DNA of 32,228 bases from a virus (IMGVR_UViG_3300006752_000119:1-32228); one strand, 5' to 3'; shown: positions 11,001-29,892, counted from the stretch's first letter. Notes: generated by a model from the letters alone, not told the origin. Program-made: numbers and translations.

Positions 11001-11345
11001 GCCAAAAACGTCGTCAAGAACTTTTCCGTATGCTAGCGTTGATTTATTAAGACCTAAAAAGCTTTTTTCTCCTGATTCTGCAAAGTTTTTCATTTTTTCG
11101 CCGTATGACAAAAATTCTTTTACATTTTCAGATGCTATGTTAACAGCTTTTCCATGATCTTCCATTGCTGCTGTTTGATTTTTTAGCGCGTCTGTAGAAG
11201 CTTCCGCATCAGCATCTAGTGAAGCTGCCGCACGATTGGCCACATCAGACTGTGAGCTCTTATTTTTGGTGCCGGCTTGGGCGCCTTTAGCTGTGTTTCT
11301 TTCTATTTTCTTAAGAAGATCAACCATAAGCTCAGACTGTAACAT
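8082..11345 (-). CDS. Tail tape measure protein (1087 aa)
   Basis: Long, Lys/Ala/Ser/Gly-rich, predominantly helical protein that fits the tape-measure class: coiled-coil-prone N-terminus (residues 1-160), then a strongly hydrophobic Gly/Ala-rich segment at about 165-225 (AAVLGPIGVAIAAIGGTMV and FFIALPLTMAASAAKIG) of the sort that may insert in the host membrane during DNA entry, then long amphipathic helices. Near the C-terminus there is a short beta-type stretch (KIELSVNLDGEMIAKQCV, about 1035-1053). It follows the gp26/gp51-like pair exactly as a tape measure should follow its chaperones. T4 gp29 has 590 residues for a tail tube of about 95 nm; scaling gives a tail of roughly 170 nm here. 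Start ATG has AAAGGA seven bases upstream. No peptidase or lysozyme motif seen. Confidence 0.85.
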   Translation of the reverse strand: MLQSELMVDLLKKIERNTAKGAQAGTKNKSSQSDVANRAAASLDADAEASTDALKNQTAAMEDHGKAVNIASENVKEFLSYGEKMKNFAESGEKSFLGLNKSTLAYGKVLDDVFGGKLQKYGKKLFKFTGGIRKSFSAFKNSGKDLDALNNGLVNTTSNFARFSALAKFGATRVAAVLGPIGVAIAAIGGTMVKVFMQTMKVGAKLTKFFIALPLTMAASAAKIGNSIRRDIVETIGNAAQETKELFDMSDRLGGKIGQATKGLVQFAQSTTTLLKFKNVTNDFVKLFGSGAGGVTALIKEYTSVLTNAGVFADIFAENVAKISKEGTPDNLILLTKATRALGVSTQDFSYVALESAKNGESLFKTLDDIAGSTATVSKEFGLNVKLVRKNFFVLRNDIINFGHLTNEELSETVAKVTQMGVSVKEASAMFNKFGTFEDAANSAALLSQTFGMNVDALQLIRAEKPEEIIEMFSDAMFATGRSFDELNRHEKAVMAQHTGLSAEALKSVMNYKNMGMTYAEIQKKMAEDDPTVQQTKNIKSMTDSLKEMQKVITDTSFFESFKKGLTATITLGSGLDPIFKRISKRMQDFYISGLTLDKSTTKKIKGIFSPITETFEKLVGKPGSKEGGIFNTKDLNKATNSFVDFFGDSLIKAFKDDSDLLEVQDTFSLKTIRAIQGGLKPGGSVASKLMEASGELIGKFLKGFAAIGPGIIKFVGKGFRDLVAWLQGYGGEKNSVSTMFTSFFKLGKTDVEAIRNTFKTLFEELKKSSGPFMSFFVWVNKKVLGMAFDIAGEVGEILNERLNPFEGMSKSNAELKEVGFNRAKKLYRGAVSAQDIRDMVASKDFRGGSGDQNQMRAQGMLQYMREAFKKQQSDSNKEILNAKAELRSKNKRIKYVHRLDVDKALESSSSDQDVTSNQIGRAMLQQLDMIAENNKNNKNNTTIQVRQANDFLSDLLGGGKALLQGGLNGFDMTLFNPADQIMAGMSGGPIDAAIRYSGDMAAEVYSLIAGMVSPAASGNTQGAGQVKHVDKIELSVNLDGEMIAKQCVKANIVAFAKDRNLGGSYDTLGDGTTRNSSSGSTEDASY

Positions 11346-11412: not shown

Positions 11413-11670
11413 CTAAAAAGACTTTTTAAACATGTTATTTGCTCTTTTGCTTTGTTGGGGTAAAGGATTATTGTTTTGCTGAGACTGTTTTTCTAAGTCT
11501 GTCTTAAGTTTTCTTATAAACCATATTCTTTTCCAAATAGGTAATTTATATGCGTCTGCATAAGAAAAACTTAAATGTTGCATTAAGACATATATTTGTT
11601 CTAAAACAATGTCTTTATTTTCAGGCGTCAGGCCAAAAAAATGTAGGTCCGATTGGCAACTCAACCTCAC
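11413..11670 (-). CDS. gp51-like tail assembly / hub chaperone, possibly made as a frameshift fusion
   Basis: Small protein in a frame overlapping the 3' end of the gp26-like gene by 50 bases. The part that looks conserved is the section after the overlap: LEQIYVLMQHLSFSYADAYK, then LPIWKRIWFIRKLKTDLEKQ. The 'L.EQI..L...G.FSY.DAY.LP.WKR.WFI..L' pattern is typical of the small gp51-like proteins found just before tape measures in T4-like phages (T4 gp51 assists hub assembly). The only upstream start in frame is GTG at 11670, with no well-spaced Shine-Dalgarno (GAAGAAA directly abuts it). This, and a T7 run inside the overlap, suggests the domain may be made mainly by ribosomal frameshifting from the upstream gene as a fusion of about 349 residues. 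The C-terminus is Gln/Asn/Lys-rich. Confidence 0.6.
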   Translation of the reverse strand: MRLSCQSDLHFFGLTPENKDIVLEQIYVLMQHLSFSYADAYKLPIWKRIWFIRKLKTDLEKQSQQNNNPLPQQSKRANNMFKKSF

Positions 11671-12463
11671 TTTCTTCGAAGCAGTGGGTGCATTCCATAG
11701 TTGCTTTCATATCAACACCAGGCTCGTGGTTATCCAAAAATCTTCTAAGCGCCAAAGAATCTCTTGCAGGCATGTTTTGAACAAAAAGTTTAATCTTGTT
11801 TTTATCTTTAATGTTTTCAATTTGTAGAATAGATCTATTTAAGCGATCAGTCACGCTATTGTCTGTATTTAAACCGCTCTTTTTCTTTCGATCATTTGTA
11901 ATCATCATTTCTTTTTCGTCATGACCAGTTAAAAACTTAACTTTAACATTCTTTTTCGTTACAGGTAAGACAACATTAAAAACGTTTTCACCTAAAACAT
12001 CTGGCTCTACTTGCAATCTTTTAATCTTTAATTCAGACAAATTAAAAGTTGACTTATTTGACTTACTACAAGCAGGACAATTTATGTCAAGCTCATAATC
12101 AGCACCGTATCCTGTAATTCTTAGCGCGACTAATAAAGCGTTTCTGTCACCTGATATTAGATCGTCGGGGTCAATTGACTTGTCGACTAAACAGCTTTTG
12201 ATTAGTTTTGAAATCACTGTTCCGTTCTTAATATAAGCTCTAGAAGTAAGAATATCTTCTTCCTTAGCTGTCATAGGTTTAATATCTAAAGTTTCAGTAT
12301 CATAAATACCTTTATCTTCAGAGTATATAACACCTCTAGAAGGAAGTGGAACAGATTCAATAGCTAGTTCAAAGCCAAAGTCATCTAACATTACATTATT
12401 TTTTTTAATTGGGCTGCTGTCTGCAATTTCTGCAGCGTCTAGCGGCTTATCAAGATTATTCAT
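11621..12463 (-). CDS. T4 gp26-like baseplate / tail assembly protein (280 aa)
   Basis: Resembles the T4-type baseplate protein family of gp26. After an N-terminal beta region (LPSRGVIYSEDKGIYDTETL, about 38-57) comes a helical segment (MTAKEEDILTSRAYIKNGTVI) that is characteristic of these proteins and of other tail chaperones. Then follow two cysteine pairs: CPAC near residue 130 (LDINCPACSKSNKSTFNLSE) and CTHC near residue 260. Together they could bind one zinc. The family works in baseplate hub assembly. The gene starts 12 bases after the third sheath-like gene with a CAGGAG site. Its last codons overlap the gp51-like frame at a T7 run, so a fraction of product may be extended into that frame. 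Confidence 0.65.
   Translation of the reverse strand: MNNLDKPLDAAEIADSSPIKKNNVMLDDFGFELAIESVPLPSRGVIYSEDKGIYDTETLDIKPMTAKEEDILTSRAYIKNGTVISKLIKSCLVDKSIDPDDLISGDRNALLVALRITGYGADYELDINCPACSKSNKSTFNLSELKIKRLQVEPDVLGENVFNVVLPVTKKNVKVKFLTGHDEKEMMITNDRKKKSGLNTDNSVTDRLNRSILQIENIKDKNKIKLFVQNMPARDSLALRRFLDNHEPGVDMKATMECTHCFEESEVELPIGPTFFWPDA
11635..11641 (-). promoter_or_regulatory. Candidate programmed frameshift site (T7 run)
   Basis: On the minus strand the gp26-like frame reads ACA TTT TTT TGG CCT GAC GCC TGA, stopping 12 bases after the T run. A +1 slip (or a -2 slip) on the seven Ts leads straight into GGC CTG ACG, the frame of the gp51-like protein; a -1 slip hits TGA almost at once. The run is the only slippery-looking sequence in the overlap, and its position just before the tape measure is where long-tailed phages place tail-chaperone frameshifts (phage Mu uses a -2 shift). 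Inference from sequence; no recoding has been shown here. Confidence 0.45.
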
Positions 12464-12475
12464 TAAGTACTCCTG

Positions 12476-15400
12476 CTATACAGATTCTATTATTATATTA
12501 TTATCTTCTTCAAAATTGTTAACAAAGTTTAGTAAATTATTTGTGCTTATTAAATTAAATAAATCACTACTTTGTGAACCTTTAAAGTTAATACCTATCT
12601 CTCCGCTAAACTCATTTCTAAACTTTTGTTGTCTAGCTCTTTCTGAATTTAATTTTACAGTATTAACATAATAATCATTTATTATTTCTCTATCAACGTA
12701 GCTTAACATAAATTCATCTAAACTTAAAAATAAATTAACATCTACTCTATTATCATTACTATCTATAGTATTAGGAGAGAATAACATAGGCGAGCCATTT
12801 ATTAAAGGAGCTGTGAATAATATATTTCTAAGATTTCTAGTTATATCATGATAAATTCTAATATTATGAAAACTTCTAAATACAGATCTATTATTTGTAC
12901 TTAAAGTATTAGAAGAAAGAGGTTTTACAAATCTATTTTGACTCATTAGACCTATAGGATTAATACTACAATCAAAGCTTTTTGTCTGCTTAAGTAAACT
13001 ATCAAAATTATTACAATTAAACTTAAATTGCATGTTTAAAGTTGAACTTACTGAAAGTGTGTCATCAGTATTATCATAGTTTACTGTTGCTATAGGTTGA
13101 GCTAATTGTGACTTTGAGAGTGACTTAAGATAAACAGTGCTAGGAGGAATTTCAACATTAAACTCATTTGAAACTACAGCCTCACAATAATTGTACAAAG
13201 CTAGACTATATTTTGAGTTTATAGACATTAATTTAAAATTATTAATTGTCTCGTTTATATTACTAATATCATTTAGATCATCTTTGACTGTTTCATCAAA
13301 GTTTAGTAAATCACTAGGTCTATTATTAAAATCTAAAAAGTAATAAGATTTGTCTCTTTGCTTTGAACCTGTAACAATTTCAGGAACATCAAATATATAA
13401 TTAAAGCTTCTTTTTGTTTCTGCTAAGTCTACAATTTCTTTAATCAAACTTTGAGAAGATATTCCTGGCATGCAAAACAAATCAACTCTACAATCTGTCT
13501 CTTCTGTTGCAATTTTATATGCAGTTCTATAAATCTCTGTGGTTTGCATTTCTGCATTTGGATCTGCAGCATTATTTGTTTCTCTTGCCACAGAAAATCC
13601 TGACATGTCTTTTTTATAATAATCTAAAATATTAACGCCATCGAAGCCACCATAACTAAAAAAGTCAAAAGAAAGAAACAAATGATTATCAGAATAATTT
13701 TCGTCGTTTGAATAAAGAAGCTTGTTTATATCCACATATTTAAAATTATTTTTTTCATCTAACGATGTAATTTGAGATATATCTTTACCATCTCTTCTGT
13801 AAAATGAATAGTCCCATCTTTTTGAAACGTTTATATCATCTGCGGCGTTATATAAAATCTTTTCTAGATGAAAGAAGTTATATTGGGTATTTTGATCTAG
13901 TTCTTCTTTCCATACACTATATTCGTCTCTATAACTACTAAAATATTTTGAATATTGTGATGCTTGATCAAAACTATTTGTTACGTTATCGTTGTATAAT
14001 TCCATTATAAAATTATAATTTTCACCATCTACTAAAACGTCTCTGACTTTAGTTAACTCTGTCTGATCAAATAGCACGCCCCACGATGCATCTTCTTTAA
14101 AAATAGGTTTTATACCTTCAAATCTTAAAATCTGTCTATTTCCAGCAAACCTCATTGGGTTTTGAATAATCGGTGTGCTGTTAGTATTTTTACGAAGATT
14201 GTTTGTGTTTATAATAGGATAGTTTTTAAAGCCGGAAGGCATCAAAGTTGTTTGGATTACTTTATCTTCAACGTCATTTGTTACTTCTACATAAATATGA
14301 TTATTTGTTTTTTTATAGTTGCCAGCAGTTACTATTTTTCCTAAATCAAAATCATAATACTCATGCTCAGTGCCTATAACCTTGCAAATATAATCATCGC
14401 TTTCTGGGTTTAAGTTTAAATCAATATACTTCGCAATAGAATTATATCTGTTTTGAGTTTTAAGACAATAAAAAACTTCAACATCAAACTTAGAATATAA
14501 CTTATTAGGATCTATATTGTTATAATTTCCTAATCTTTTAGGCGTTATTCTAAATCTATATTTATTTCCTTCTTCACCGTCTGAATAAGTATGAAATCTA
14601 AATAATTCAACACACTCTTTCCATATACTTTCTTTACTAGTGTCTGAAGACTGTATTGTATTGACTGGTTGCGATACTACCCAAGGCGTCTTTGCTTTTC
14701 TAAAAACATCTTTAAAACTTTGATAGTTAATAGCATCTTGGACAGCTGAGTTTTGAAATGTTATAAATGATGCTGTTGAAGCTTTTTTTGTTTTCTCATT
14801 AGGATAATCAAATAAATCAATATCTCTAAACGAGCAATAATTTAAGTGGCCTCTGTTTAAATTAAAATAACTGCTTGTATTTAACTTGTCTTCATACATA
14901 CTAAATCTTTTATAAGAATCAGTTTTAAGAGGCGTTTCAATAATACTTTTGCTCGAGTCACTCAATCCTTTAATATAAATGTAAGGATAAGATATGTCAG
15001 ATTCGATGATTGCACTAGGATTGTCAGACTGGTAAGTTCCTAGTTCTTGCCTTTTTTGACTTAAATCTAGCTCATCTAGCAAATCTTTTTGTAGATCTAA
15101 CTTTATTCCTTGTGCTGCAAATATAACATTTGTTATAATTCCTATTGTGTCATCTGTTTGTCCTATTTGATCAAAGTAGTTTTCAAAAGAAGAAGTATAT
15201 ACAACTTCTTGATCGTCGTGTCCATCTGGCCCAACAAAAGATCTTTCAGAAACATATTTGCCTTCAAAATAGCATAAACCGTTAATTAAATCATTACTGC
15301 TTTTAACGGCATATTCATTAGGGTCAAAAAAAATTTGATTTCCGACTGTAAATCCTGCGTGATCGTATTCACCTGCTTGATTTTTTTCAAAACTACCGTT

Positions 15401-15703
15401 GCCTACGCCTAACACTCGAGTATAACTAAGCTGACTACCGTTATTTTCTAGCCAGACTTTTGAAGAAATTGGGCTTGCATGTTGTTTTTGAAAATTAAAG
15501 TCACCAAAGATATTTTCCCAAGTGTTGAGTATACTAGAATCTTGCGCAAAAGAGACGACTTGTTGTGGAACAAAAGCAGGGCCTCTCATTGCTGTGCCGA
15601 CAAGACTTAGCGTTTCGTCAGTCAAAGAAATAGTTTCTTCTTCTAGAAATATTCTTTGCGTAACTATGTCGCCTGTAATTTGTGCATTATTTCTGTTTGA
15701 CAT
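12476..15703 (-). CDS. Diverged tail sheath-like protein (1075 aa)
   Basis: Third sheath homologue. It keeps landmarks shared with the other two: RGPAFVP at residues 40-46, AKTPWVVSQ with a following SDGEEGNKYRFRI, CKVIGTEHEYYDFD, LMPSGFKNYP and GGFDGVNILDYY. It lacks the strongly conserved PWFAPAG.SRG block seen in the others. Its C-terminal domain is only faintly aligned (HNIRIYHDITRNLRNILF for NVRRL...RR..LLFE; FSGEIGINFKGSQSSDLFNL for the usual G.I...PT...EFI.LDF), and the final DFVITNS arm is replaced by an Asn-rich tail. It is richer in Asn, Tyr, Ile and Lys than its paralogues. Likely a specialised minor sheath or baseplate-proximal ring protein rather than the main contractile subunit; that role is inference. 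Start ATG has AGGAGAC upstream. Confidence 0.75.
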   Translation of the reverse strand: MSNRNNAQITGDIVTQRIFLEEETISLTDETLSLVGTAMRGPAFVPQQVVSFAQDSSILNTWENIFGDFNFQKQHASPISSKVWLENNGSQLSYTRVLGVGNGSFEKNQAGEYDHAGFTVGNQIFFDPNEYAVKSSNDLINGLCYFEGKYVSERSFVGPDGHDDQEVVYTSSFENYFDQIGQTDDTIGIITNVIFAAQGIKLDLQKDLLDELDLSQKRQELGTYQSDNPSAIIESDISYPYIYIKGLSDSSKSIIETPLKTDSYKRFSMYEDKLNTSSYFNLNRGHLNYCSFRDIDLFDYPNEKTKKASTASFITFQNSAVQDAINYQSFKDVFRKAKTPWVVSQPVNTIQSSDTSKESIWKECVELFRFHTYSDGEEGNKYRFRITPKRLGNYNNIDPNKLYSKFDVEVFYCLKTQNRYNSIAKYIDLNLNPESDDYICKVIGTEHEYYDFDLGKIVTAGNYKKTNNHIYVEVTNDVEDKVIQTTLMPSGFKNYPIINTNNLRKNTNSTPIIQNPMRFAGNRQILRFEGIKPIFKEDASWGVLFDQTELTKVRDVLVDGENYNFIMELYNDNVTNSFDQASQYSKYFSSYRDEYSVWKEELDQNTQYNFFHLEKILYNAADDINVSKRWDYSFYRRDGKDISQITSLDEKNNFKYVDINKLLYSNDENYSDNHLFLSFDFFSYGGFDGVNILDYYKKDMSGFSVARETNNAADPNAEMQTTEIYRTAYKIATEETDCRVDLFCMPGISSQSLIKEIVDLAETKRSFNYIFDVPEIVTGSKQRDKSYYFLDFNNRPSDLLNFDETVKDDLNDISNINETINNFKLMSINSKYSLALYNYCEAVVSNEFNVEIPPSTVYLKSLSKSQLAQPIATVNYDNTDDTLSVSSTLNMQFKFNCNNFDSLLKQTKSFDCSINPIGLMSQNRFVKPLSSNTLSTNNRSVFRSFHNIRIYHDITRNLRNILFTAPLINGSPMLFSPNTIDSNDNRVDVNLFLSLDEFMLSYVDREIINDYYVNTVKLNSERARQQKFRNEFSGEIGINFKGSQSSDLFNLISTNNLLNFVNNFEEDNNIIIESV

Positions 15704-15713
15704 TCAAGTCTCC

Positions 15714-15755
15714 TGCATAAATAGTTTTTTTTTTGTGCTTATAACTATTTATGCA
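15714..15755. repeat. 13-bp perfect inverted repeat in leader of third sheath gene
   Basis: TGCATAAATAGTT (15714-15726) and AACTATTTATGCA (15743-15755) are perfect inverted copies separated by 16 bases containing a run of Ts. On the minus strand the hairpin would end immediately before the AGGAG ribosome-binding site of the third sheath-like gene. Each arm holds ATAAATAG, close to the T4-type late promoter TATAAATA. There is no T tract after the stem on the minus strand, so it is not a standard terminator. It may be a translational regulator, an mRNA-stabilising or processing stem, or a promoter duplication. Confidence 0.6.
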
Positions 15756-15781
15756 AAAAGTAAGTTGACAGAATCAATTAA

Positions 15782-16270
15782 TTAATATTGTAGAACGCAG
15801 TTATCGAACCTGATGCTTAAAGAAATATCTGTTGGATCGTCACCGTCGTAACTAAGGTCACCGTAAGCAGCACTTGTTAAAAATGCGCCTTTGATGTCCC
15901 AAAGCTCTACAACAGTCCCAACTGGGTCAAGCATCTTAAGCTGAATATCGCGCTTATAAAAGTCTGCATATCCTGCACGACCACTAACTGATTCGTAGTG
16001 TGTTCTAATCCATTCCATTACTTGCTGAGCTCCGCTTGGTGCAATAGGATCATGAATAGTAACAGAAAGTGAATCAAAAGTCATCTTACCTGCGATGTAT
16101 CTTTTCGCATTAATAAAGTTGATTTCAGTTTCGCCTATTTGGAATGTAGGTCTTGCAGCTGATTTAATAAGAAAAGCGTCGATGCCTTCGATTGCCAAGA
16201 TCCATCGATTCTTTCTTTTTGGCTCAAACTTATTTGGAATCATTTCCGTGACTGAAAGTGTCTCTGGCAT
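15782..16270 (-). CDS. Tail tube protein, T4 gp19-like (162 aa)
   Basis: Length (162) is nearly that of T4 gp19 (163). The sequence shows the tail-tube fold signature: PKRKNRWILAIEGIDAFLIK at the N-terminus, then a middle strand pair (TFQIGETEINFINAKRYIAG), a central WIRTHYESVSGRAGYADFYK helix/loop, and a closing strand set (YDGDDPTDISLSIRFDNCVL) typical of gp19, where 'D......I.....F..C' finishes the barrel. It forms stacked hexamer rings inside the sheath through which DNA passes. It is unusual in lying between two sheath genes rather than after a single one. Expression is probably high: AGGAG site and a TATAAATA element 27 bases upstream of the ATG. Confident call. Confidence 0.92.
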   Translation of the reverse strand: MPETLSVTEMIPNKFEPKRKNRWILAIEGIDAFLIKSAARPTFQIGETEINFINAKRYIAGKMTFDSLSVTIHDPIAPSGAQQVMEWIRTHYESVSGRAGYADFYKRDIQLKMLDPVGTVVELWDIKGAFLTSAAYGDLSYDGDDPTDISLSIRFDNCVLQY

Positions 16271-16296
16271 TTTATTTTCTCCTAATAATTCTTATG

Positions 16297-16304
16297 TATT
16301 TATA
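16297..16304 (-). promoter_or_regulatory. Putative late promoter of tail tube gene
   Basis: The minus strand reads GATATATAAATACATAAG here, containing an exact TATAAATA, the T4 late promoter -10 consensus, in the 36-base gap before the tube gene. The 3' end of the box lies 26 bases before the ATG, leaving room for a start site and the AGGAG site. AT-rich sequence makes chance matches possible. Confidence 0.45.
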
Positions 16305-16306
16305 TA

Positions 16307-19300
16307 TCAATCAATTGAGTTAGTTACAACAAAGTCAAGTGAAATAAACTCTACAGACTTAGTAGGCTGTAAGTATACCTTACCTCTTATTGTATTGTTT
16401 TCAACATCGTTTTGTGTTGTTGTAGAAGTATCAATTTGTACTTTATATCTATCAACACCCTGTCTTGCTTGAATTTCTGCCATAATTGGCTCAACAAGCG
16501 CACTAAACTTAGCTAGAGTAGATGCTCTATTAGGCTCAAAGAGTAACGTGTTTGCAACTGCTTTAACTCTTCTTCTAACATTGATCAATAACCTTCTAAC
16601 GTTAATTCGATCTAACGCAGATTGATTCTGTAACAATGTCTTTTGTCCAAACGCATAAACTTCGCCAGGACGACCTGATGGTTCGTATATTTGATTTATA
16701 TCTTCATCATAAAGATCATCCAGAACGTCGCGATTCATCTGCACCTTTGAGTTAAGAGCATTAAGCTTTCCTCTACTAAGACCTGCAGGAGCAAACCAAG
16801 GGTCTGCAAGGAAGTCGTTTTGACTCATAACACCTAACATACTTACAGATGGTGGAACCTCAACAGGCGTTCCATTCGAAGGCCTTCTAATAATTACATT
16901 AGGGAAGTAAGCTGCTGCAAATGACGTATCCAAACTTCTGTTTCTAAATCTATTAATTGTATTCGCTACATTAGGTAATGATTCATCAGTTGTAGGCAAA
17001 GTATTACCCTCAGCTACTTCTTCAATGTCAACCAACAACATCGCGTCAAATCTGCTTTCGCAAGCTGTAATTGCGTAATCTGTAATTAAAGGCTCACGCA
17101 TTCCTGGAACTGCCAAAAGCTGGAACTCAGTTGCACTCTTGTCACTTAATACGTCAATTGCTTTCTTATATGAATCCACTGTTACACCGGTAAATTTGGC
17201 ATTATCAGTTTCATCATTAGCTTCTCTAAATGCTGCTACTGAACTCATCTTAGATTTTTCTTCATTAAAGATATCTAATCCATCAAATCCGCCTTGCATC
17301 ATAAATCTAAACTTAAGATATCTAGAGTTTTTACCTACAGCATGTGTTCCAACATTTAATTGAGTTGTTAAAGAACCTGCTTCACCATCACGTCGATACT
17401 CAGCAGTTGACCAGTCAAGCTCTCCATCAGAATCTAAATTTAGATAGATGTTATTTAAGCTAAACTTACTGTTTTGATGAGTATCTGCTGTAGAGTCTGA
17501 TACTAAATTTGGCAAGAATTTTGTCCAAGATGGCATACTAGTATTTGTTCTTATTTCAGTTAACTCGTTAGGCTCGTCGTCGCGCTTAGTCTTTTTAGCA
17601 AACTTAACACCCCAAGAAAGCTTTGCATCAGCAACTTTAGAAGAACCTGATTTCTTAGCTATTGATTTAACATAAGGAACCGGTAAAACTTGATGTCTAT
17701 CATAAGAAGCATCTGACACGACCTTGCCTGCGCCATCTCCATCTGTTCCACTTTCTACTATTGCAAGTGGTGCATAGCTAAGTCCTCTAAATCCGCAGGG
17801 CATTGTTACAAATGTAATGTCTCCAGCATCAACAGACGGATCCATCTCAACTCTAATATAATCATTAGTTACATCGTAAGTTCCTTCTTCAACAAGTCTT
17901 TGTCGGGATTCTGCTGCATCAAAGTTATAATAAATGTGTTTATCACCTATTACTCTAGCAATATAATTTCTGCTATCAGGGTCTAAAGTAAGGTTTCTCC
18001 AAGATGCAATTACTTCGCCTGAAATAGGATCGCTGTCAAATCTCTCTAGTGCTAATGTAAATGTCGCATAATCACTTGCAGAGTTGCCAAGCTTTAAGTC
18101 AGATATTTGAACTCTAAATCTACTATTTGCTACTTCACCATCGTCAAGTGCATATACCTTAAATAAATCCTGATCAGTTTGCGAAATAACCCAAGGTGAC
18201 TGTGCAGTCTTAAATGATTCTCTAAAAGTTCTATAGTTTTCACTAGCCTTACTACAGAAAGCGTAATTAACATCTATTGCAGCTCCACTTGGTGCTGTAA
18301 CACCATCATTACTTGGAACGGCACAAGCTTTGTCAATATCCCAATTTAGATATAGATAATGGCCTAACTTTTCAATCTTTGTAGGATCTGTGTTTAAAAC
18401 CTTTGCAAAGTAATTTGGGCTCTCTGGATCAAAAGAACAAGACAAAGTATTTAATTCAGATGAATTGTTAAAACCATTTAACAATAAACTAAATGCTTGA
18501 GTATCATCTGCTATTTCTCCTAGCTCATAACCAATTAACTTTGTATCGTCTCCTACGTCTGGAGAAGCAAAGTTTTTAAGCGCACCGCTACTTGTAACCG
18601 CAACATTAAGGCGAGAATCAGTATCTGCTTGATTAAATGTCGTGTTTGCTAAAGCAGGAACAACGCCTTGTGGCACCATCAAGACACCTCTAACTAAAGG
18701 AGCTGCTGCACCGCCACCGCCTACAAAGTTTTCTTGCTTTTTACCAAAGTTACCAACTACAACTTCACCTTCACTATTAGAAATAGTCACTGTGCTTGTC
18801 GCAGATAACTTATTCTTTAACTTAGCTCTTACTCCTTTTTCAGTTGAGGCTTGTTGTAAAGAAATGGTGCCGCTATCTGATACTATGTCTAGCGGTGTGA
18901 CATTATCACTTTCAAACAATACCAAGTTATCTTTTAAGTTTTGAACTGATGTGGAAATTAAACAATTTTTAAGATTATAAAGCGTCTCTAATATATCAGA
19001 GCCAATCTTACAGTTTGTAACTCTTAATCCATTGTTATCACTAAACTGTGTAATTTCCGCATTGACGCCAGCGTCAGTAGCAAAATCTGCAACTTCTGAT
19101 CCATACTCACCTGTCAAGTCTTGCTCGAATATAACTTTATCAAGGTCATTGCCGGGGTCAGCAATAGCAGTTATTTTTAATGGATTAGATAAATCATTAA
19201 ATCCTGCAATTAGTCGTGTAGCTCGATTAGCATCTGAATCATTAGCAACATCAAAACCAATAGTCAAAGTTGATGAAGGTACATCAAAAGATACATTTGC

Positions 19301-21313
19301 ATCAGCTATGCCGAAAGCAACGTTAATAGTTGTACCTTCTAGATCTGTAAGTGCTGTTATGTTTTTGCCATCAACACTAACGTTACCTTTAAACTTAAAG
19401 CTTGCTGTTGCCTTAGTACTGTCTGTAGTATTTACCGAAGCATTTGTCACAGCACTACTTGTAGTAAACTTGATTTTTTCTTTATCTATTTGATCAGTCT
19501 CTGCATTATTAACTGTTTGAAGTTCTAAGACATCATTGTTATTAGGTTGACCTGATAGTGATAAATCAAATGATACAGGATCAGCGTCTCTACCATTTTT
19601 CATAAACTTTACTTTGTCTTCTTCACCTTGTGTAGATACTAAATTAAAATCTTCAGTAGTTTGCTGTGTTCCATTCGTTAAGTTAGTATCGGCATCTGAT
19701 GCACATTCTATAATAAGACTATTTTCACCAACAGCACCTTTAAGCACAATATTTCCAGTGTTGTTTGTCCTTTTAATGCCTGCGTTGCCTTTATAGACAC
19801 TTACAATTCTTAAACTTAATCCATTAGGAGAAATCGTAGTTTCAAATAATCCTCTATGCACTAAAGTATGATCATCTATTGATGTTCTATCGATAGCAGA
19901 CTTAAGATTTAATAATGTTTCTTTTATAGTTCCACCGCTGTATATTGTAACAGCATTTGCACTTGTAACTTCATATCGATTTGCAACATCGTCAGCACCT
20001 GCAACGTCTGCAGCAATTGCTGTATCATCAAATTCATAAGTTACATGATTCCCGTCAATTGTAAAAGTTCCATCACCTTCATTTTTTAACCCAAAAAACT
20101 TTATCGAAGTATCATCTTTTGGTTTGCTCACACCATCTCTAGAACTAATTGTAAACTCAGCAGCAACAGCGTTATCTAAGCCCCAGAAAAAGTCTCTTTC
20201 AGAAGAAGCTATTCCATCTTGAACTGTTATGTCTGATTCTGAGCCTCCTGAAGTTGAATTTGTTATGTTATAATCAACTGTAAAACTATTAGAAGAAGGA
20301 AACTGTGTTGAGTGGATTGATCGTATCTCTAAAGAAGCTTGATCTAAGTCTTCTACAAGCTTAACAGTTGTGAGTGCATTGAAGCCTTGGTTGGCAGTGC
20401 TTGTAAGAACAAACTCGCCACCCACAGCGGCTTCTGCTGCGCCTAAAGTGCTGATGTTTGCAAAAAAGCCAATGTCGCCTGCATTAATATTTACAATTTT
20501 ATATGTAGCGCCAACAAAAATGCCTGCGATATCACCGCCACCATCATTTAAAGGAATTGCGTCTGCTTTTGCTATCTCTCCATCGCTAAATCTTGTTGGA
20601 ATAAAAGTTGCTGTAAGGTCGGTAAGTGCATCAATTTTTTGACTTAAGTTACGTACACTTTCAACAGATTTTGTTCCTTTTGTTGACTGGCTAGCGTTTC
20701 CAGCAGAAGCAACAAATGTTATTGTTGATTCAACGTCAACACCTACATCATCTTTATGTTTAATTTTAAACGTATCGTCAATAGTAGGAAGTGCACCGTT
20801 TTTAAGTGAATATGTCAAAACACCAGATGTCGATTCTGTTGTGACGCCTGAATCTTTTAAGTATGTGCTTTCGTTTGTATCTTTCATGAAGCAGCCTAGG
20901 AAATATGTGTCTCCATCAATTAAGCCTTCTCCGGATTCTTTAGCGGCATGTGGATTATCTTGTAGTTTATCGTCACCATCATATGATACTTGATTACCTA
21001 CAACAAAACCTGCGTCATCACCTACACCTAAAACTCTGAGATAAGTACCTGCTTGTGCTTGGCGCATCCATTCGTTAAGTGCTAGAGGTCCAAACTTATT
21101 TGAGTTGCTATCTTTGTGAACTTCTTGCATTGAGCCAAAACATTTATTAAATTGTTCCATTGTCGCAAATGTTTTAGGCACAAAAGCCGGTCCACGACGT
21201 GAAGGCCCAACAACAGCTGCAGGAACGCCAACAGGTAGTTGTTCTAAGCTACTTACGTCTGATCTATCTATTTCATTAAGTGTAACTCTTGCTGAGCCTT
21301 GTCTATTAGACAT
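16307..21313 (-). CDS. Extra-large tail sheath protein with about 700-residue insertion (1668 aa)
   Basis: Sheath homologue with intact core. N-terminal RGPAFVP at 40-46 and YFLGCF near 138; then from about residue 960 the block SFDPESPNYFAKVLNTDP, AQSPWVISQ, YALDDGEVANSRFRV, ARVIGDKHIYYNFD, MPCGFRGLSY, GGFDGLDIFNEE, LAVPGMREPLITDYAI, PWFAPAGLSRG, DRINVRRLL, ARQGVDRYKVQID and the C-terminal arm PTKSVEFISLDFVVTN. Between about 150 and 880 lies a Thr/Asp/Ser/Gly-rich insertion absent from the 1033-residue paralogue. It contains several similar modules with a helix such as ETLLNLKSAID or ETLYNLKNCL followed by beta strands, so probably surface domains decorating the tail. T4 gp18 has 659 residues. 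The C-terminal arm needed for sheath meshwork is retained, so it can probably polymerise. Strong AGGAG site. Confidence 0.88.
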   Translation of the reverse strand: MSNRQGSARVTLNEIDRSDVSSLEQLPVGVPAAVVGPSRRGPAFVPKTFATMEQFNKCFGSMQEVHKDSNSNKFGPLALNEWMRQAQAGTYLRVLGVGDDAGFVVGNQVSYDGDDKLQDNPHAAKESGEGLIDGDTYFLGCFMKDTNESTYLKDSGVTTESTSGVLTYSLKNGALPTIDDTFKIKHKDDVGVDVESTITFVASAGNASQSTKGTKSVESVRNLSQKIDALTDLTATFIPTRFSDGEIAKADAIPLNDGGGDIAGIFVGATYKIVNINAGDIGFFANISTLGAAEAAVGGEFVLTSTANQGFNALTTVKLVEDLDQASLEIRSIHSTQFPSSNSFTVDYNITNSTSGGSESDITVQDGIASSERDFFWGLDNAVAAEFTISSRDGVSKPKDDTSIKFFGLKNEGDGTFTIDGNHVTYEFDDTAIAADVAGADDVANRYEVTSANAVTIYSGGTIKETLLNLKSAIDRTSIDDHTLVHRGLFETTISPNGLSLRIVSVYKGNAGIKRTNNTGNIVLKGAVGENSLIIECASDADTNLTNGTQQTTEDFNLVSTQGEEDKVKFMKNGRDADPVSFDLSLSGQPNNNDVLELQTVNNAETDQIDKEKIKFTTSSAVTNASVNTTDSTKATASFKFKGNVSVDGKNITALTDLEGTTINVAFGIADANVSFDVPSSTLTIGFDVANDSDANRATRLIAGFNDLSNPLKITAIADPGNDLDKVIFEQDLTGEYGSEVADFATDAGVNAEITQFSDNNGLRVTNCKIGSDILETLYNLKNCLISTSVQNLKDNLVLFESDNVTPLDIVSDSGTISLQQASTEKGVRAKLKNKLSATSTVTISNSEGEVVVGNFGKKQENFVGGGGAAAPLVRGVLMVPQGVVPALANTTFNQADTDSRLNVAVTSSGALKNFASPDVGDDTKLIGYELGEIADDTQAFSLLLNGFNNSSELNTLSCSFDPESPNYFAKVLNTDPTKIEKLGHYLYLNWDIDKACAVPSNDGVTAPSGAAIDVNYAFCSKASENYRTFRESFKTAQSPWVISQTDQDLFKVYALDDGEVANSRFRVQISDLKLGNSASDYATFTLALERFDSDPISGEVIASWRNLTLDPDSRNYIARVIGDKHIYYNFDAAESRQRLVEEGTYDVTNDYIRVEMDPSVDAGDITFVTMPCGFRGLSYAPLAIVESGTDGDGAGKVVSDASYDRHQVLPVPYVKSIAKKSGSSKVADAKLSWGVKFAKKTKRDDEPNELTEIRTNTSMPSWTKFLPNLVSDSTADTHQNSKFSLNNIYLNLDSDGELDWSTAEYRRDGEAGSLTTQLNVGTHAVGKNSRYLKFRFMMQGGFDGLDIFNEEKSKMSSVAAFREANDETDNAKFTGVTVDSYKKAIDVLSDKSATEFQLLAVPGMREPLITDYAITACESRFDAMLLVDIEEVAEGNTLPTTDESLPNVANTINRFRNRSLDTSFAAAYFPNVIIRRPSNGTPVEVPPSVSMLGVMSQNDFLADPWFAPAGLSRGKLNALNSKVQMNRDVLDDLYDEDINQIYEPSGRPGEVYAFGQKTLLQNQSALDRINVRRLLINVRRRVKAVANTLLFEPNRASTLAKFSALVEPIMAEIQARQGVDRYKVQIDTSTTTQNDVENNTIRGKVYLQPTKSVEFISLDFVVTNSID

Positions 21314-21345
21314 ATTGTTAGTCTCCTATTTTTAAATCTATAAAA

Positions 21346-21356
21346 CTATATATTAC
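21346..21356 (-). promoter_or_regulatory. GTAATATATAG element upstream of large sheath gene
   Basis: The minus strand carries GTAATATATAG 32 bases upstream of the ATG of the 1668-residue sheath gene, partly over the stop codon of the preceding gene. The identical 11-mer precedes the decoration-like gene at 29855, and the first ten bases recur upstream of the gene at 30603. A candidate late promoter core; AT richness lowers certainty. Confidence 0.35.
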
Positions 21357-24300
21357 GGAAATTCAACACCTGAGTTAGTAATTACAAAATCAATTGCAAT
21401 AAATTCAATAGCTCTTGTAGGCACAATAACAATTTGTCCGTTAAGTCTATTATTATCTACGTCCTGTGCTGTATTGTTTGTATCGTCCATAATAACTCTA
21501 AAGTCTTCGATACCTTGATTAATCTGAATATTTGCAAGTTGACTGCTAGCAGAAGAAATAAATCTATTTCTAGTCTTTGAGTTGTTTTGCTCAAATAGTA
21601 AACCTTGCGCAATTAACTCTATTCTTCTCTTAATCTCTAAAACAAGTCTTCTTACGTTAACTCTATCAAGTGCAGTTCTCTTTAGCTGTGTTGTCTTCTG
21701 TCCAAATATAACAAATTGTTTATTTGGGAAGTTTGCAATTGGATTAATTCTAGACTCATACAATGTATCTCTATCTTCAGCGTTAAGTCTAACTGAAATT
21801 GAAGAAATAGATTCTAATGCACCTCTTGAAAATCCTGCTGGAGCAAACCAAGGCTGCGAAATGGAATCAGTCAAAGCTAATGCACCAAGTGCAACAATCG
21901 ATGAAGGCACCAACACAGATCTTCTAGAATTAACAGCAGCTTCGTCAGAGTCACCGCTATCCAAAACTTTTACGTCCGGAAAGTAAGATGCTACATAAGA
22001 TGAATCCACTTCACGAGTATCAAAATCACCAGCTGTAAGCACAACGTCAGGCTTTGAACTCTCAGTGCCTCTTGCATCAACAAAAACTCTTTTACTATCT
22101 TTGTCATACTGCTCTAAGTCCATTAAGTAAATTGCTTTACCATACTCTTCTTCAATTCTATCCTTAACGAGATCTGTTACAAATCTATCGCGAATATTTG
22201 GTATAGCCAAGACATTATGATTAACAACGAGATCATCTGTCATTATTCTGATCGCGTTTTTATAAGAAGCAATAACATTGTTTAGGTCTTCACTACCTTG
22301 CATAACAGAACCAACGTCAGCCTTTAAAGTTCCATGTATTCCACTTTCAAATCCTTCAATAGCGCCTTTACCTTTTGGTGTGGTTGAGGTATGAACTGAA
22401 GCTGCTCTGTCTGTCATAAAGTAAGAGTCTCTATCAAAGATGTTTAACCCATCAAAACCACCACCCATCGGTGCAGTAAACTTTGCCATAACTGAATATT
22501 TGTTAAACTTTAAAGTGTCTTCTGCTAAAAGCTTTGCTAAAGAAACTCTGTCAGCTGCATCAATATCGTCATTAGTTCCACCCATTTTAATTAAATGTGC
22601 TGAAGCGTCATAAACGTCAGAATTAGAAACTTCTGCATTTCTTACGTAAACTGCGCTTTTAAAAACATCGTTTGTTGTCCCAGTTACTCCGTTAACAGTA
22701 GCACCTTTAAGAGCAACCTTTGCCAAAGAAAACTTATTGTTATTATGACTGTCTGATAGTGAGCCAGAAGTAATCACTGTTTGATCTACACCAAAAAACT
22801 TTGTATAGTTTGAAAGAAGCTCGTTAAACTCTGTGCTTTTATTTGCATTATTAATGTCTAAAACGCGTGTAGACATAAGACCCCAGTGTAGAGCAAAGTT
22901 AACACTTTCAGACGGAGATGCATCACCTAAGAAAGTTTGTTCGTAAGATTGATTTGTTCTAATGTCACCGTTTGTTACTTTAAATCTATAAGGCAGAGGA
23001 GGCAAAATAGAATCTAAAAGTTCGTTAACTTTAGCATCACCGGCGCCCGAGTCTACTGCAAAAAGACTGTAATTGGTGTCTGAGTCTTTTGCTGTCGCAT
23101 TAAAGTGCAAAGCGTCAATGCCTCTAAACCCAAAAGGAAGTGTTTTTGCTGGAACTTCGCCTTGCATAATTGCATCGCTAACAACAACTCTTACTTTCTG
23201 TGAATTGTTCTTAAACGTACCTTCTCTTACAAGTCTTCTTTCGTTTTCGCTTGCAGCATCAAAGTTAAAGTATACCTTTTGATCACCAATTACTCTGCTT
23301 ATAAAGTTGCTAGAATTAGGATCTAAAGAACACTGGTTGAATGTTTCGTAAATAATAGGTGATTCATCTGTATCTTTTAAATCTCTAACTGTAACTGTAA
23401 ACGTTCCATACTCATCAGTTGGATCTGTGCTTGCTCTTAAGTTAGATATAGATATTTTATATTTGTCGTTTGCGTAAGCACCGTCGTCCAAAGAATCGAA
23501 ATGAAACAAGTCATATTCACGTGAACCAAAAGGTTGCGAAATAAACATTGGTGAAGTTGCTGATTTAAATCTTGACTCAAAGTTTTCAAAAGCGCCTGCA
23601 AAGCCATCTGTTTTTTCTTGTAAAAGAGAATATGGCGAGTTTGCAGCAGGTTCTGCAACTTCTGAATCAATAGGGAAATGTGCGTAGAGAAAATGCTTTT
23701 TACTTTCTAAAGCAAAAGGATCTGTATTAAGAACCTTTGATATATACTTGTCGCTACCTGGATCTAAAGAAAAAACGTAGTCTAAACTATCTCCCGCTTG
23801 GCCTGCATCATCTTTAAATCTAATGTAAAAAAGTTTATTTTGATTGACATGATAGCTGTTTATTTGCTCGGTAAAAGATCCGCTAGCTTCTTGCAAAGGA
23901 ATGATAGAGTAGTCTTTGTGAGTAATAATCATTGCTCTAACTATATTGACAAGATTATCGTTACCATTTGGAGCATTTGGGCCACCATCATCGTCCATAT
24001 TTGTAGTAAAAGAGTCGTTATCGTTTATAGATCCTAAACCAAGCCATTCTCCAGCGCTAACCGTGTGTGTAGATGCAAGAAAATAAGAAGCACCAATTAG
24101 CCTTCCGGCTGTACCGCCACCAACAGCATCAGTTCTCGGTGTAAATTTAAATCCAGCGTTTTCTTGGCTTTTGAGTCCGCTGCCTAAAACTCTGCAGAAA
24201 GTTAGTGCAGAGTTAGTTGTGCTATTTCTAAAATATTCTGCTGCTGCATGACCGCCGAGTCTATTTGGGTCAGGTTCACCAAAAATTCTAATATATTCTT

Positions 24301-24454
24301 CTCTAGATGTAACTGTAGTGGGTACGAATGCAGGACCTCTTTTTGACGTTGATATAACTCCAACAGGCGTCGCTTTTGTTCTGCTTATTGGTCTGCTTAT
24401 TATCTCAATTTCTCGTTCAAAAAAGCCTGGAGACTTAAATGTCTGCTCTGCCAT
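21353..24454 (-). CDS. Tail sheath protein (1033 aa)
   Basis: Contractile tail sheath, the first of three homologues in transcription order and the one most like a classic sheath at both ends. N-terminal arm MAEQTFKSPGFFEREIEI, RGPAFVP at 39-45, REEYIRIFGEPDPN. Shared mid blocks: DPGSDKYISKVLNTDP, ATSPMFISQPF, DSLDDGAYANDKYKI, SRVIGDQKVYFNFD, LPFGFRGIDAL, GGGFDGLNIFD, LAIPNIRDRFVTDLV. C-terminal sheath domain: SQPWFAPAGFSRGALESI, FVIFGQKTT, ALDRVNVRRLVLEIKRR, LLFEQNNSKTRNRF, QGIEDFRVIMDD, and the arm PTRAIEFIAIDFVITNSG. Subunits form helical hexamer rings round the tube and contract on infection. It is about 370 residues longer than T4 gp18, the extra length being in domains after residue 125. 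Preceded by AGGAG and located right after the gp15-like gene. Confidence 0.92.
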   Translation of the reverse strand: MAEQTFKSPGFFEREIEIISRPISRTKATPVGVISTSKRGPAFVPTTVTSREEYIRIFGEPDPNRLGGHAAAEYFRNSTTNSALTFCRVLGSGLKSQENAGFKFTPRTDAVGGGTAGRLIGASYFLASTHTVSAGEWLGLGSINDNDSFTTNMDDDGGPNAPNGNDNLVNIVRAMIITHKDYSIIPLQEASGSFTEQINSYHVNQNKLFYIRFKDDAGQAGDSLDYVFSLDPGSDKYISKVLNTDPFALESKKHFLYAHFPIDSEVAEPAANSPYSLLQEKTDGFAGAFENFESRFKSATSPMFISQPFGSREYDLFHFDSLDDGAYANDKYKISISNLRASTDPTDEYGTFTVTVRDLKDTDESPIIYETFNQCSLDPNSSNFISRVIGDQKVYFNFDAASENERRLVREGTFKNNSQKVRVVVSDAIMQGEVPAKTLPFGFRGIDALHFNATAKDSDTNYSLFAVDSGAGDAKVNELLDSILPPLPYRFKVTNGDIRTNQSYEQTFLGDASPSESVNFALHWGLMSTRVLDINNANKSTEFNELLSNYTKFFGVDQTVITSGSLSDSHNNNKFSLAKVALKGATVNGVTGTTNDVFKSAVYVRNAEVSNSDVYDASAHLIKMGGTNDDIDAADRVSLAKLLAEDTLKFNKYSVMAKFTAPMGGGFDGLNIFDRDSYFMTDRAASVHTSTTPKGKGAIEGFESGIHGTLKADVGSVMQGSEDLNNVIASYKNAIRIMTDDLVVNHNVLAIPNIRDRFVTDLVKDRIEEEYGKAIYLMDLEQYDKDSKRVFVDARGTESSKPDVVLTAGDFDTREVDSSYVASYFPDVKVLDSGDSDEAAVNSRRSVLVPSSIVALGALALTDSISQPWFAPAGFSRGALESISSISVRLNAEDRDTLYESRINPIANFPNKQFVIFGQKTTQLKRTALDRVNVRRLVLEIKRRIELIAQGLLFEQNNSKTRNRFISSASSQLANIQINQGIEDFRVIMDDTNNTAQDVDNNRLNGQIVIVPTRAIEFIAIDFVITNSGVEFP

Positions 24455-24509: not shown

Positions 24510-25736
24510 CTAATTATCATTATTTGATATATTAAAAATTAATTCAGCATATTTTTCGTCATAGACTGTTTCACCTGAAGTATTTTGAACTGCTCTTACT
24601 TTAACGATATTTCCATCTTGATCTTTTACGTTTACTTTTGTGTGCTTTCTTTCGTTTGTATATTTTTCTGCAACAGCATCATATTTTTGCAAATTGCCGG
24701 GTTCTGCAACAAAAGCATGTGATTTGTCATATTCTAAAAGATTTTGTAAATTATCAATATCAGTTACACCTGTAATTTGTGAAATAAAACCGTCATTACT
24801 ATTTACGTCTTCAAGCAACATTCGAGCGTCTGCAGTATTTGCAGGAATTCCTTTGATTTTTGGATCAATATCTTTAGCACTTTGTAAAACTTCAAAAGAA
24901 AACTTTGGTGCACTTATAAGAGACTTAATTCCTACTTTTCCGCCTCGTATATTAGGAGCAAGAATGTAACCTGTTGTAGATATTGTCATCGAGTATTTGA
25001 TGTACCTGTGCGCGTCTGTATAATCTGCGTAGTTTGTATCTTGCGAAAAAGAACTTTCAACAAAAGCAGGAAACCAATATCCTTTCTGGCTTTCAACTCT
25101 AAATTGTTGACCAGGATTAAGCGTGTAAGCGCTCATTATCGTTTCCAATAGTTTGTTCATTTGTTGCGTAAAAGATGACCACACAGTAATCTCGTATGTC
25201 GTACCAAAGTATTTTACAGGTGGTATTTCTATGGTTTCATAGATATTATTTTCAAGATCAGGTTTTAAACTAAAGTTTGGATTTTTTAGATCGCTTTCTT
25301 TAGATGTATAAGAAAGATTTTGAATGCCTTCAAAGTTATTTAGCTGTCGCCATGCGGCATTATTGCTAGCAACTCTTCGTGCAACAACTTCAGGAAACAT
25401 TTGATTATTCGCAATTCCTTTCGAAGGATTATTTTCAATTGCACCTCTTGAAATAGAAATAAGCGGAAGAATTAATGCGCCTCTTTTATCAGTAATAGGC
25501 ATTTTTCTTCTTAAGAGCGCAAATCTCTCACCGGTTGCAAAAACAACTGGGACTTTTTTTGTTTCTCCCTCAAGATCGTAGTAAAGAGGTATTTGTTTAT
25601 CGAATAAAGAAAAGACAGCGAAGTCAAGATCTTCTAAACCACATGACGGGATAACATAGTCATATGACTTTTCGTCTTCATAGCCTGATATTACTTTGTT
25701 ATCTTGTTCTGTATTGCTATCAAATCTTGTTGCCAT
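24510..25736 (-). CDS. gp15-like tail terminator / sheath stabiliser (408 aa)
   Basis: Assigned mainly by order (gp13-gp14-gp15-sheath as in T4) and by the segment VPVVFATGERFALLRRKMPI followed by TDKRGALILPLISISR (about residues 62-97), which is typical of the gp15-type tail completion proteins of T4-like phages. Around residues 165-210 are a proline-tyrosine segment (IPPVKYFGTTYEITVW) and helix TQQMNKLLETIMSAYTLNPG, also usual in this family. The protein forms a hexameric ring that caps the tube and sheath and joins the tail to the neck. The 408 residues exceed T4 gp15 (272), the extra being a charged C-terminal region. Its ATG overlaps the upstream stop in TAATG, indicating translational coupling. 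Confidence 0.7.
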   Translation of the reverse strand: MATRFDSNTEQDNKVISGYEDEKSYDYVIPSCGLEDLDFAVFSLFDKQIPLYYDLEGETKKVPVVFATGERFALLRRKMPITDKRGALILPLISISRGAIENNPSKGIANNQMFPEVVARRVASNNAAWRQLNNFEGIQNLSYTSKESDLKNPNFSLKPDLENNIYETIEIPPVKYFGTTYEITVWSSFTQQMNKLLETIMSAYTLNPGQQFRVESQKGYWFPAFVESSFSQDTNYADYTDAHRYIKYSMTISTTGYILAPNIRGGKVGIKSLISAPKFSFEVLQSAKDIDPKIKGIPANTADARMLLEDVNSNDGFISQITGVTDIDNLQNLLEYDKSHAFVAEPGNLQKYDAVAEKYTNERKHTKVNVKDQDGNIVKVRAVQNTSGETVYDEKYAELIFNISNNDN

Positions 25737-29345: not shown

Positions 29346-29855
29346 TTATACTACAAATATTAATCCGCCAGCTGCTTGGCTTACGCCTTGAACTGACCAT
29401 TTTGAGCCTGTGTAAAATAGCTCAATAAAATCTCCTGCTTTGGCTGTGTCTGCTACAAACCGAATTTTCGAATCATCTTCTGGGTCATTGTTAACAGCTA
29501 AATTTGCTCTATCAACTGCTGCGCCTCCTTGATATAAAGTTCCAGCAAAATCGTGAGCACCATCACCTTGGATTACTTCTATTGTTTTTCCTGCTGCAAC
29601 ATCTATAGCAGTTATAACTCTATATTTAACACCTGTTTCAGGGGCAGCTGGTAATGTTATATCAATATCGTTATCTGCGTTATGAGTAACAAGAAAAACT
29701 TTTCCTGAATCTTCATTTTTTAAAGTATTAGCTGCTGCTGATATTGGCACAATTTTTTTTCTAAATCCTGATAATTCACCACGCAAGTCTAGAGCAGCAT
29801 CTGTCGATGACTTTTGCACTAACCCTTTTACTTGCGTATATTCTACACTTGGCAT
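29346..29855 (-). CDS. Decoration-like beta protein, short paralogue (169 aa)
   Basis: Short form of the duplicated beta-rich protein. The start is set at the ATG at 29855 (MPSVEYTQVKGLVQ) because AGGAGG lies five bases before it and the paralogue starts at the same residue; the open frame continues upstream to 29888 but those codons overlap the ribosome-binding site. The body is beta-type: KVFLVTHNADNDIDITLPAA, TGVKYRVITAIDVAAGKTIE, SKIRFVADTAKAGDFIELFY, WSVQGVSQAAGGLIFVV. Such proteins with a terminal GD.IEL..TG..W.V.G motif occur in phage particles, so a head decoration or fibre role is inferred. A near-perfect ribosome-binding site and a dedicated leader preceded by a terminator suggest high, separately controlled expression. 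Confidence 0.65.
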   Translation of the reverse strand: MPSVEYTQVKGLVQKSSTDAALDLRGELSGFRKKIVPISAAANTLKNEDSGKVFLVTHNADNDIDITLPAAPETGVKYRVITAIDVAAGKTIEVIQGDGAHDFAGTLYQGGAAVDRANLAVNNDPEDDSKIRFVADTAKAGDFIELFYTGSKWSVQGVSQAAGGLIFVV

Positions 29856-29892
29856 AACTTCCTCCTTTTCGGATAAACTTGTCCGCATGATT

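What the first reader, a model, noticed from the sequence alone, without database searches (positions are those of the whole stretch)
12476..24454. Three sheath homologues in one tail operon, with the tube gene between the second and third
Three adjacent genes (1033, 1668, 1075 aa) share sheath landmarks: RGPAFVP at residues 39-46 in all three, S/T-P-(W/M)-x-x-SQ, Y-(Y/F)-(D/N)-FD and GGFDG. T4-like phages normally have one sheath gene followed by the tube gene. Seen here: two copies keep the full C-terminal sheath domain and arm, one does not. This suggests a heteromeric sheath or specialised rings at the ends of the tail. I know of no standard model for a three-sheath tail.
Basis: partly seen in the sequence, partly recalled or inferred. 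Interest (0 to 1): 0.75.

Follow-up and report, generated by a model that had tools for sequence, protein, structure and literature searches.

The report
Phage tail with three sheath proteins
A little-known group of T4-like phages, seen so far only in environmental DNA, carries three related sheath proteins in its contractile tail instead of one; two look like abundant building blocks of the shaft, and the third looks like a deliberately rare, specialised ring, an arrangement otherwise known from bacterial toxin-injecting syringes.

Summary
Three adjacent proteins, S1 (1033 aa), S2 (1668 aa) and S3 (1075 aa), are sheath homologues, with the tube gene between S2 and S3. S1 and S2 hit sheath models directly. 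S3 hits no Pfam or PHROG model, but its family aligns to S1 and S2 over nearly its whole length (hhalign E 2e-55 and 6e-92), and its AlphaFold model (pTM 0.83) matches only sheaths at the top of the PDB. The order S1-S2-tube-S3-gp26 recurs in about 40 IMG/VR contigs, including one of 239.5 kb; relatives have one or two sheaths.

New evidence separates the roles. S3 lacks the N-arm motif, evolves about 3.5 times faster than S1, has the base composition of low-copy genes, and is preceded by a conserved hairpin that buries its ribosome-binding site (z below -2 in 31/33 loci, against 3/124 control junctions). Best model: S1 and S2 build the shaft; S3 is a rare end ring, probably at the baseplate. 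Precedents exist (Afp/PVC three sheaths; PaBG two), so this is a new variant of a known kind. No virion data exist.

The parts
21353..24454 (-). S1: tail sheath paralogue 1 (1033 aa), canonical N-arm (SPGFFEREI) and C-arm
   Evidence: Pfam Phage_sheath_1C E 1.5e-9 and Phage_sheath_1 E 1.5e-7; PHROG 23 tail sheath E 1.8e-54; family profile to T4 gp18 E 5e-46; AlphaFold/VIA Z 15.2 to KP1 sheath
16307..21313 (-). S2: tail sheath paralogue 2 (1668 aa) with a length-variable insert of about 770 residues (about 100-870); conserved arms
   Evidence: Phage_sheath_1C E 1.1e-6; PHROG 23 E 1.2e-40; family profile to T4 gp18 E 3.4e-34
15782..16270 (-). tail tube protein (162 aa)
   Evidence: PHROG 4542 tail tube E 1.9e-27; phrog_45 E 1.6e-13
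15711..15758 (-). RNA hairpin (16 pairs) in the tube-S3 gap that pairs the AGGA of the S3 ribosome-binding site
   Evidence: z -4.35 for the window gap; conserved in 31/33 loci with z below -2, ribosome-binding site paired in 26/27; both-side changes in 5 of 11 consensus pairs
12476..15703 (-). S3: divergent tail sheath paralogue 3 (1075 aa), altered N- and C-terminal arms
   Evidence: hhalign to S1 and S2 families E 1.9e-55 and 6.3e-92; AlphaFold pTM 0.83; top PDB matches all sheaths
11621..12463 (-). gp26-like baseplate protein, always the next gene after S3 where the contig reaches it
   Evidence: Pfam T4_baseplate E 9.1e-18; PHROG 150 baseplate hub
24510..25736 (-). gp15-like tail sheath stabiliser/terminator
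   Evidence: Pfam T4-gp15_tss E 1.2e-7
26398..27843 (-). neck protein (head-tail adaptor Ad2-like)
   Evidence: PHROG 211 E 1.2e-10
8082..11345 (-). putative tape measure protein (1087 aa)
   Evidence: position after tube/gp26, length and Ala/Gly-rich hydrophobic stretches; no Pfam/PHROG hit; inference

Best explanation
This is the tail operon of a T4-like myovirus whose contractile sheath is made from three paralogues of one sheath family. S1 and S2 keep the sheath fold and both polymerisation arms, are under similar constraint and have the composition of high-copy proteins; they most likely build the contractile shaft together (mixed or in alternating or sectored rings). S3 keeps the sheath body but has altered arms. 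Its translation is held down by a conserved hairpin over its ribosome-binding site, so only a few copies are made. It most likely forms a single specialised ring at one end of the sheath, probably at the baseplate, where it would cap or initiate the lattice instead of propagating it. Shown: homology, fold, conservation, gene order, hairpin (as predicted structure with covariation), arm divergence. Inferred: copy numbers, ring role, which end, mixing of S1 and S2.
For: All three are sheaths. S1, S2 and S3 form three separate clades, S3 at support 100, and S3 follows the tube in every contig of this clade that shows both (39 loci). The canonical N-arm motif is absent in 34/34 S3. S1's model aligns to solved sheaths through their C-arm (Pvc2 to residue 353), S3's stops before it (341). 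Hairpin at tube-S3: mean z -4.86, 31/33 below -2, against 3/124 at other junctions; ribosome-binding site paired in 26/27, with covariation. GC: S1 .359, S2 .366, tube .384, S3 .296, with S2 above S3 in 35/35; in T4 GC rises with copy number, rho 0.60. S3 diverges as fast as baseplate and tape-measure genes: 38% identity to the 239-kb relative against 38, 43 and 34% for those and 55-60% for S1/S2; S3/S1 rate 3.5. Precedent: Afp2 and Afp3 are both in the helical shaft entries, Afp4 is not.
Against: No virion, proteomic or expression data. GC is a weak proxy for copy number (rho 0.60 in T4, with T4 copy numbers from my own knowledge). The S3 tail is modelled at low confidence (pLDDT about 44-59), so the missing C-arm rests mainly on sequence. 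gp25, the usual sheath initiator at the baseplate, is still present in two three-sheath contigs, so S3 does not replace it. The hairpin might serve RNA processing or regulated timing, not copy number.
Confidence: 0.5

Rival explanations
1. PVC-like division: one of S1/S2 (most likely S2, next to the tube) forms the whole shaft, and both other paralogues are end rings (S1 at the neck or baseplate, S3 at the other).
For: In PVC, Pvc3 and Pvc4 occur only in the baseplate entry 6J0N, six chains each, while Pvc2 has 30 chains in three entries. In this operon S1 lies next to gp15 (sheath terminator) and S2 next to the tube.
Against: S1 has the same GC, Gly/Ala/Val content and evolutionary rate as S2 (S2/S1 rate 1.12); no hairpin precedes S2 (0/30) and only 3 of 28 S1 starts have a notable fold.
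Confidence: 0.2
2. S3 is a rare ring at the head end of the sheath (under gp15), not at the baseplate.
For: Low-copy signature and altered arms fit any terminal ring; gp25 is still present at the baseplate end.
Against: The S3 gene sits between the tube and a baseplate gene, away from gp15, and diverges at the rate of baseplate genes while the neck genes are 64-74% identical. Gene position is only suggestive.
Confidence: 0.15
3. S3 is not part of the particle: it is an assembly factor or a decaying extra copy.
For: Altered arms, fast evolution and low predicted expression.
Against: S3 is an intact open frame of 1061-1231 aa in 28 full-length loci, with about 50 invariant residues across 25 sequences and a conserved gene position; a decaying copy would not look like this.
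Confidence: 0.08
4. Mis-assembly or chance similarity produced the apparent paralogues.
For: The window is a metagenomic fragment.
Against: The same arrangement is in dozens of contigs with different sequences, including one of 239.5 kb with capsid, portal and terminase genes.
Confidence: 0.01

Closest known systems
Afp (anti-feeding prophage) and PVC extracellular contractile injection systems: Afp2/3/4 and Pvc2/3/4
   Same: Three adjacent, homologous sheath genes in one tail operon (PMC9230969); in Afp two of them occur in the helical shaft entries and one only in 6rao (baseplate) and 6rgl; in PVC two occur only in the baseplate entry. Afp4 and the PlPVC1 sheath chain 9qgl_4A match the S1 profile only short of the C-arm, a parallel to S3.
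   Different: Those are headless protein-injecting particles with sheaths of about 350-450 aa; this is a DNA phage (capsid, portal, terminase in the 239-kb relative) with T4-type sheaths of 1000-1700 aa. The two sets of paralogues are not shown to be orthologous; convergence is likelier.
Two-component sheath of jumbo phage PaBG (Lupandier group); Alexandravirus
   Same: More than one sheath gene in a phage, arisen by duplication; both PaBG proteins are in the virion protein table (PMC7412058; PMC9686651).
   Different: Two paralogues, not three; no third copy described; not compared by sequence here.
T4 gp18/gp19 sheath-tube pair
   Same: Fold, C-terminal domain, gene neighbours gp13/14, gp15, tube, gp26, gp25.
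   Different: T4 has one sheath gene.
Single-sheath relatives: Microcystis phage Mel-JY01, Rhodothermus phage RM378, Flavobacterium phage immuto
   Same: Closest named relatives of S1/S2, similar gene order in Mel-JY01 and immuto.
   Different: One sheath gene each.
Huge phage LR756508 (484 kb)
   Same: Two sheath genes upstream of a tube gene.
   Different: No S3; the tube lies about 7 kb further on; its two copies do not group with S1 and S2 respectively.

Membership tests
Phage contractile tail sheath (T4 gp18-like; Phage_sheath_1/1C) | Sheath C-terminal domain detectable by sequence | tested here: met
   S1 and S2 over the Pfam cut-off. S3 not by Pfam/PHROG but by profile-profile alignment through the domain
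Phage contractile tail sheath (T4 gp18-like; Phage_sheath_1/1C) | Sheath fold | tested here: met
   S3: Foldseek 9mkb T4 E 1.5e-11, VIA Z 25.2 (411 aligned, 4.2 A) to KP1 sheath. S1: Z 15.2. S2 not folded; sequence E 3.4e-34 to T4 gp18
Phage contractile tail sheath (T4 gp18-like; [quoted passage not shown]
   Present as conserved sequence in S1 and S2; in S3 the N-arm motif is absent (0/34) and the C-arm differs, but the model is of low confidence there
Phage contractile tail sheath (T4 gp18-like; Phage_sheath_1/1C) | Polymerises around the tube and contracts | not testable with these tools
   needs virions or recombinant proteins
Three-sheath eCIS (Afp/PVC type) | Three adjacent sheath paralogues | tested here: met
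Three-sheath eCIS (Afp/PVC type) | Headless particle, no capsid or packaging genes | tested here: not met
   major head protein, portal and terminase in the 239.5-kb three-sheath relative; neck genes in the window. Not filed as an eCIS
Three-sheath eCIS (Afp/PVC type) | One paralogue confined to a baseplate-proximal ring | not testable with these tools
   only indirect: arms, hairpin, composition
PaBG-type two-component sheath | Two sheath proteins both present in the virion | not testable with these tools
   no virion data for this virus

The most novel reading that the evidence does not exclude
A phage tail sheath built as a heteropolymer of two paralogues, with a third, RNA-throttled paralogue that has lost the lattice-propagating arms and serves as a dedicated end ring: a three-component sheath that arose in phages independently of the Afp/PVC syringes, with stoichiometry set by a ribosome-blocking hairpin.
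Probability: 0.4. Interest if true: 0.75.

Novelty: new variant of a known kind. Interest (0 to 1): 0.56.

Why it matters
Contractile tails are usually treated as one sheath protein repeated in identical rings. A clade of phages that keeps three paralogues in fixed order, from a family whose relatives have one or two, gives a natural series for asking how a homomeric contractile lattice becomes heteromeric and how its ends are specified. The hairpin gives a simple handle: it predicts the stoichiometry and can be tested with reporters. It also suggests that the three-sheath design of Afp/PVC arose more than once.

Tried and rejected
(1) S3 replaces gp25 as sheath initiator: rejected, gp25 is present in two three-sheath contigs. 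(2) The insert in S2 is related to the protein at 28380-29315: not supported (best phmmer domain E 0.018 against a single target, blastp E above 1); no Pfam family for the insert. (3) Hidden S3 between tube and gp26 in two-sheath phages: rejected, those gaps hold small ORFs and homing-endonuclease-like genes. (4) S3 as sister of S2: best tree (support 96) but alternatives not rejected (p-AU about 0.3); left open. (5) Late-promoter motifs between the sheath genes: counts uninformative in so AT-rich a genome. (6) S3 relatives in bacterial genomes, to name a host: none confirmed. (7) Rfam: no match to the hairpin or anything else. (8) Sequence-profile search of S3 against PDB: nothing significant.

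Full report
Observation. The window is a 32,228-base virus record. On its - strand lie neck, gp15-like, S1 (21353-24454, 1033 aa), S2 (16307-21313, 1668 aa), tube (15782-16270), S3 (12476-15703, 1075 aa), gp26-like, a putative tape measure and further genes in the position of baseplate genes.

Are all three sheaths? S1 and S2 pass Pfam's sheath cut-offs and hit PHROG sheath families; their family profiles find T4 gp18 at E 5e-46 and 3e-34. S3 hits nothing sheath-like in Pfam or PHROGs, nor do 24 relatives. Yet blastp joins it to S2 at about 5e-33, and its family profile aligns with those of S1 and S2 over nearly the full length. AlphaFold gives S3 pLDDT 78.4 and pTM 0.83. Every Foldseek match to E 0.001 is a sheath, and VIA-align gives Z 25.2 to the KP1 sheath, with pyocin, T4, Afp and PVC sheaths close behind. 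S1's own model is weaker (pLDDT 65.7) but also matches only sheaths at the top.

Conservation. Searches of IMG/VR brought about 90 related loci. The order S1-S2-tube-S3-gp26 holds wherever it can be seen: S3 follows the tube in 39 loci. Other relatives have S1-S2-tube-gp26 without S3, and a third set has one sheath (Mel-JY01, immuto and contigs). The tree gives S1, S2 and S3 as separate orthologous clades; the three-sheath viruses form one clade among both the S1s and the S2s. Whether S3 stems from S2, S1 or an older split is unresolved. The 239.5-kb contig behind L034 has exactly these three sheath genes plus major head protein, portal, terminase and gp25, so this is a phage and not a headless injection system.

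How S3 differs. (a) N-arm: S1 begins MAEQTFKSPGFFEREI and three-sheath S2 GSARVTLREID, both nearly invariant; no S3 of 34 has such a motif. The strict motif search rang in 25 of 47 S1 and 22 of 43 S2; the rest include variants such as SPNFF and GSARV. (b) C-arm: S1/S2 end in a conserved strand (AVEFIAIDFVITNS / SVEFISLDFVVTNS); S3 has a different sequence, predicted as a short strand and helix at low confidence. With the same aligner S1's model reaches residue 353 of Pvc2 and S3's stops at 341. (c) Rate: S3 evolves about 3.5 times faster than S1; against the 239-kb relative its 38% identity equals that of baseplate-region and tape-measure proteins, while S1 and S2 are 60 and 55% and the tube 85%. 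(d) Composition: mean GC is .359 (S1).366 (S2).384 (tube) and .296 (S3), S2 above S3 in 35 of 35 loci; in T4 GC correlates with virion copy number at rho 0.60, p 0.004, copy numbers from my own knowledge. In the 239-kb contig the head protein is among the highest (.448) and S3 lies below the genome mean.

A hairpin over the S3 start. The tube-S3 gap folds far better than chance in 31 of 33 distinct loci (mean z -4.86) and pairs the ribosome-binding site in 26 of 27. The other junctions (gp15-S1, S1-S2, S2-tube, S3-gp26, and tube-gp26 in viruses without S3) do so in 3 of 124. The window's own gap has z -4.35. Stems differ in sequence between loci and keep pairing: 5 of 11 consensus pairs show changes on both sides in 17 sequences, 4 of 24 in the close group. 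One part of the clade has a terminator-like hairpin after the tube. Either form should lower S3 output relative to the tube. This is my inference; no expression was measured. Controls used fixed 82-base stretches and the S3 gap its full length; each was compared with its own shuffles.

Mechanism. Two high-copy, arm-bearing paralogues and one rare paralogue with altered arms point to a shaft of S1 and S2 and an end ring of S3. The gene's place beside a baseplate gene and its baseplate-like rate favour the baseplate end over the neck. Precedent in structure: Afp2 and Afp3 are both in all five Afp entries including the helical shaft, Afp4 only in 6rao and 6rgl; Pvc3 and Pvc4 only in the baseplate entry.

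Known or new. Three adjacent sheath genes are known in Afp and PVC (PMC9230969) and two in PaBG-like and Alexandravirus phages (PMC7412058, PMC9686651). [quoted passage not shown] I found no paper on a three-sheath phage, but the library holds open-licence papers only. Hence a new variant of a known kind.

Noticed in passing
window 15711-15758, and tube-S3 gaps of 33 loci: Conserved hairpin burying the S3 ribosome-binding site; became central evidence.
   Followed up: yes
L039, L043, L047, L052, L096, L041, L035, directly after the tube gene: Terminator-like hairpin between tube and S3 in one part of the clade, besides or instead of the ribosome-site hairpin.
   Followed up: partly
window 18704-21016 (S2 residues about 100-870): Large insert without Pfam match; full-length S2 varies from about 1000 to 1668 aa between relatives while S1 and S3 vary far less.
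   Followed up: partly
window 28380-29315 and 29346-29888: Two tandem genes sharing their N-terminal 77 residues at 50% identity with different C-terminal parts; possibly virion decoration proteins with exchangeable ends.
   Followed up: no
L041, L042, L047, L049, L096: Two tape-measure-like genes in tandem.
   Followed up: no
L055, L064, L020, L092: Two-sheath relatives carry ORFs that look like homing endonucleases between S1 and S2 or between tube and gp26.
   Followed up: no
L113 (239.5-kb contig 206798-215611): Island of GC 0.39-0.51 in a 29% GC genome.
   Followed up: no
L034 contig as a whole (L103-L114): Shine-Dalgarno motif upstream of 53% of genes against 6% background, which speaks against a typical Bacteroidota host although named relatives infect Rhodothermus and Flavobacterium; host unknown.
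   Followed up: partly
LR756508 (L002): 484-kb phage with two sheath genes and the tube about 7 kb away behind several other ORFs.
   Followed up: partly
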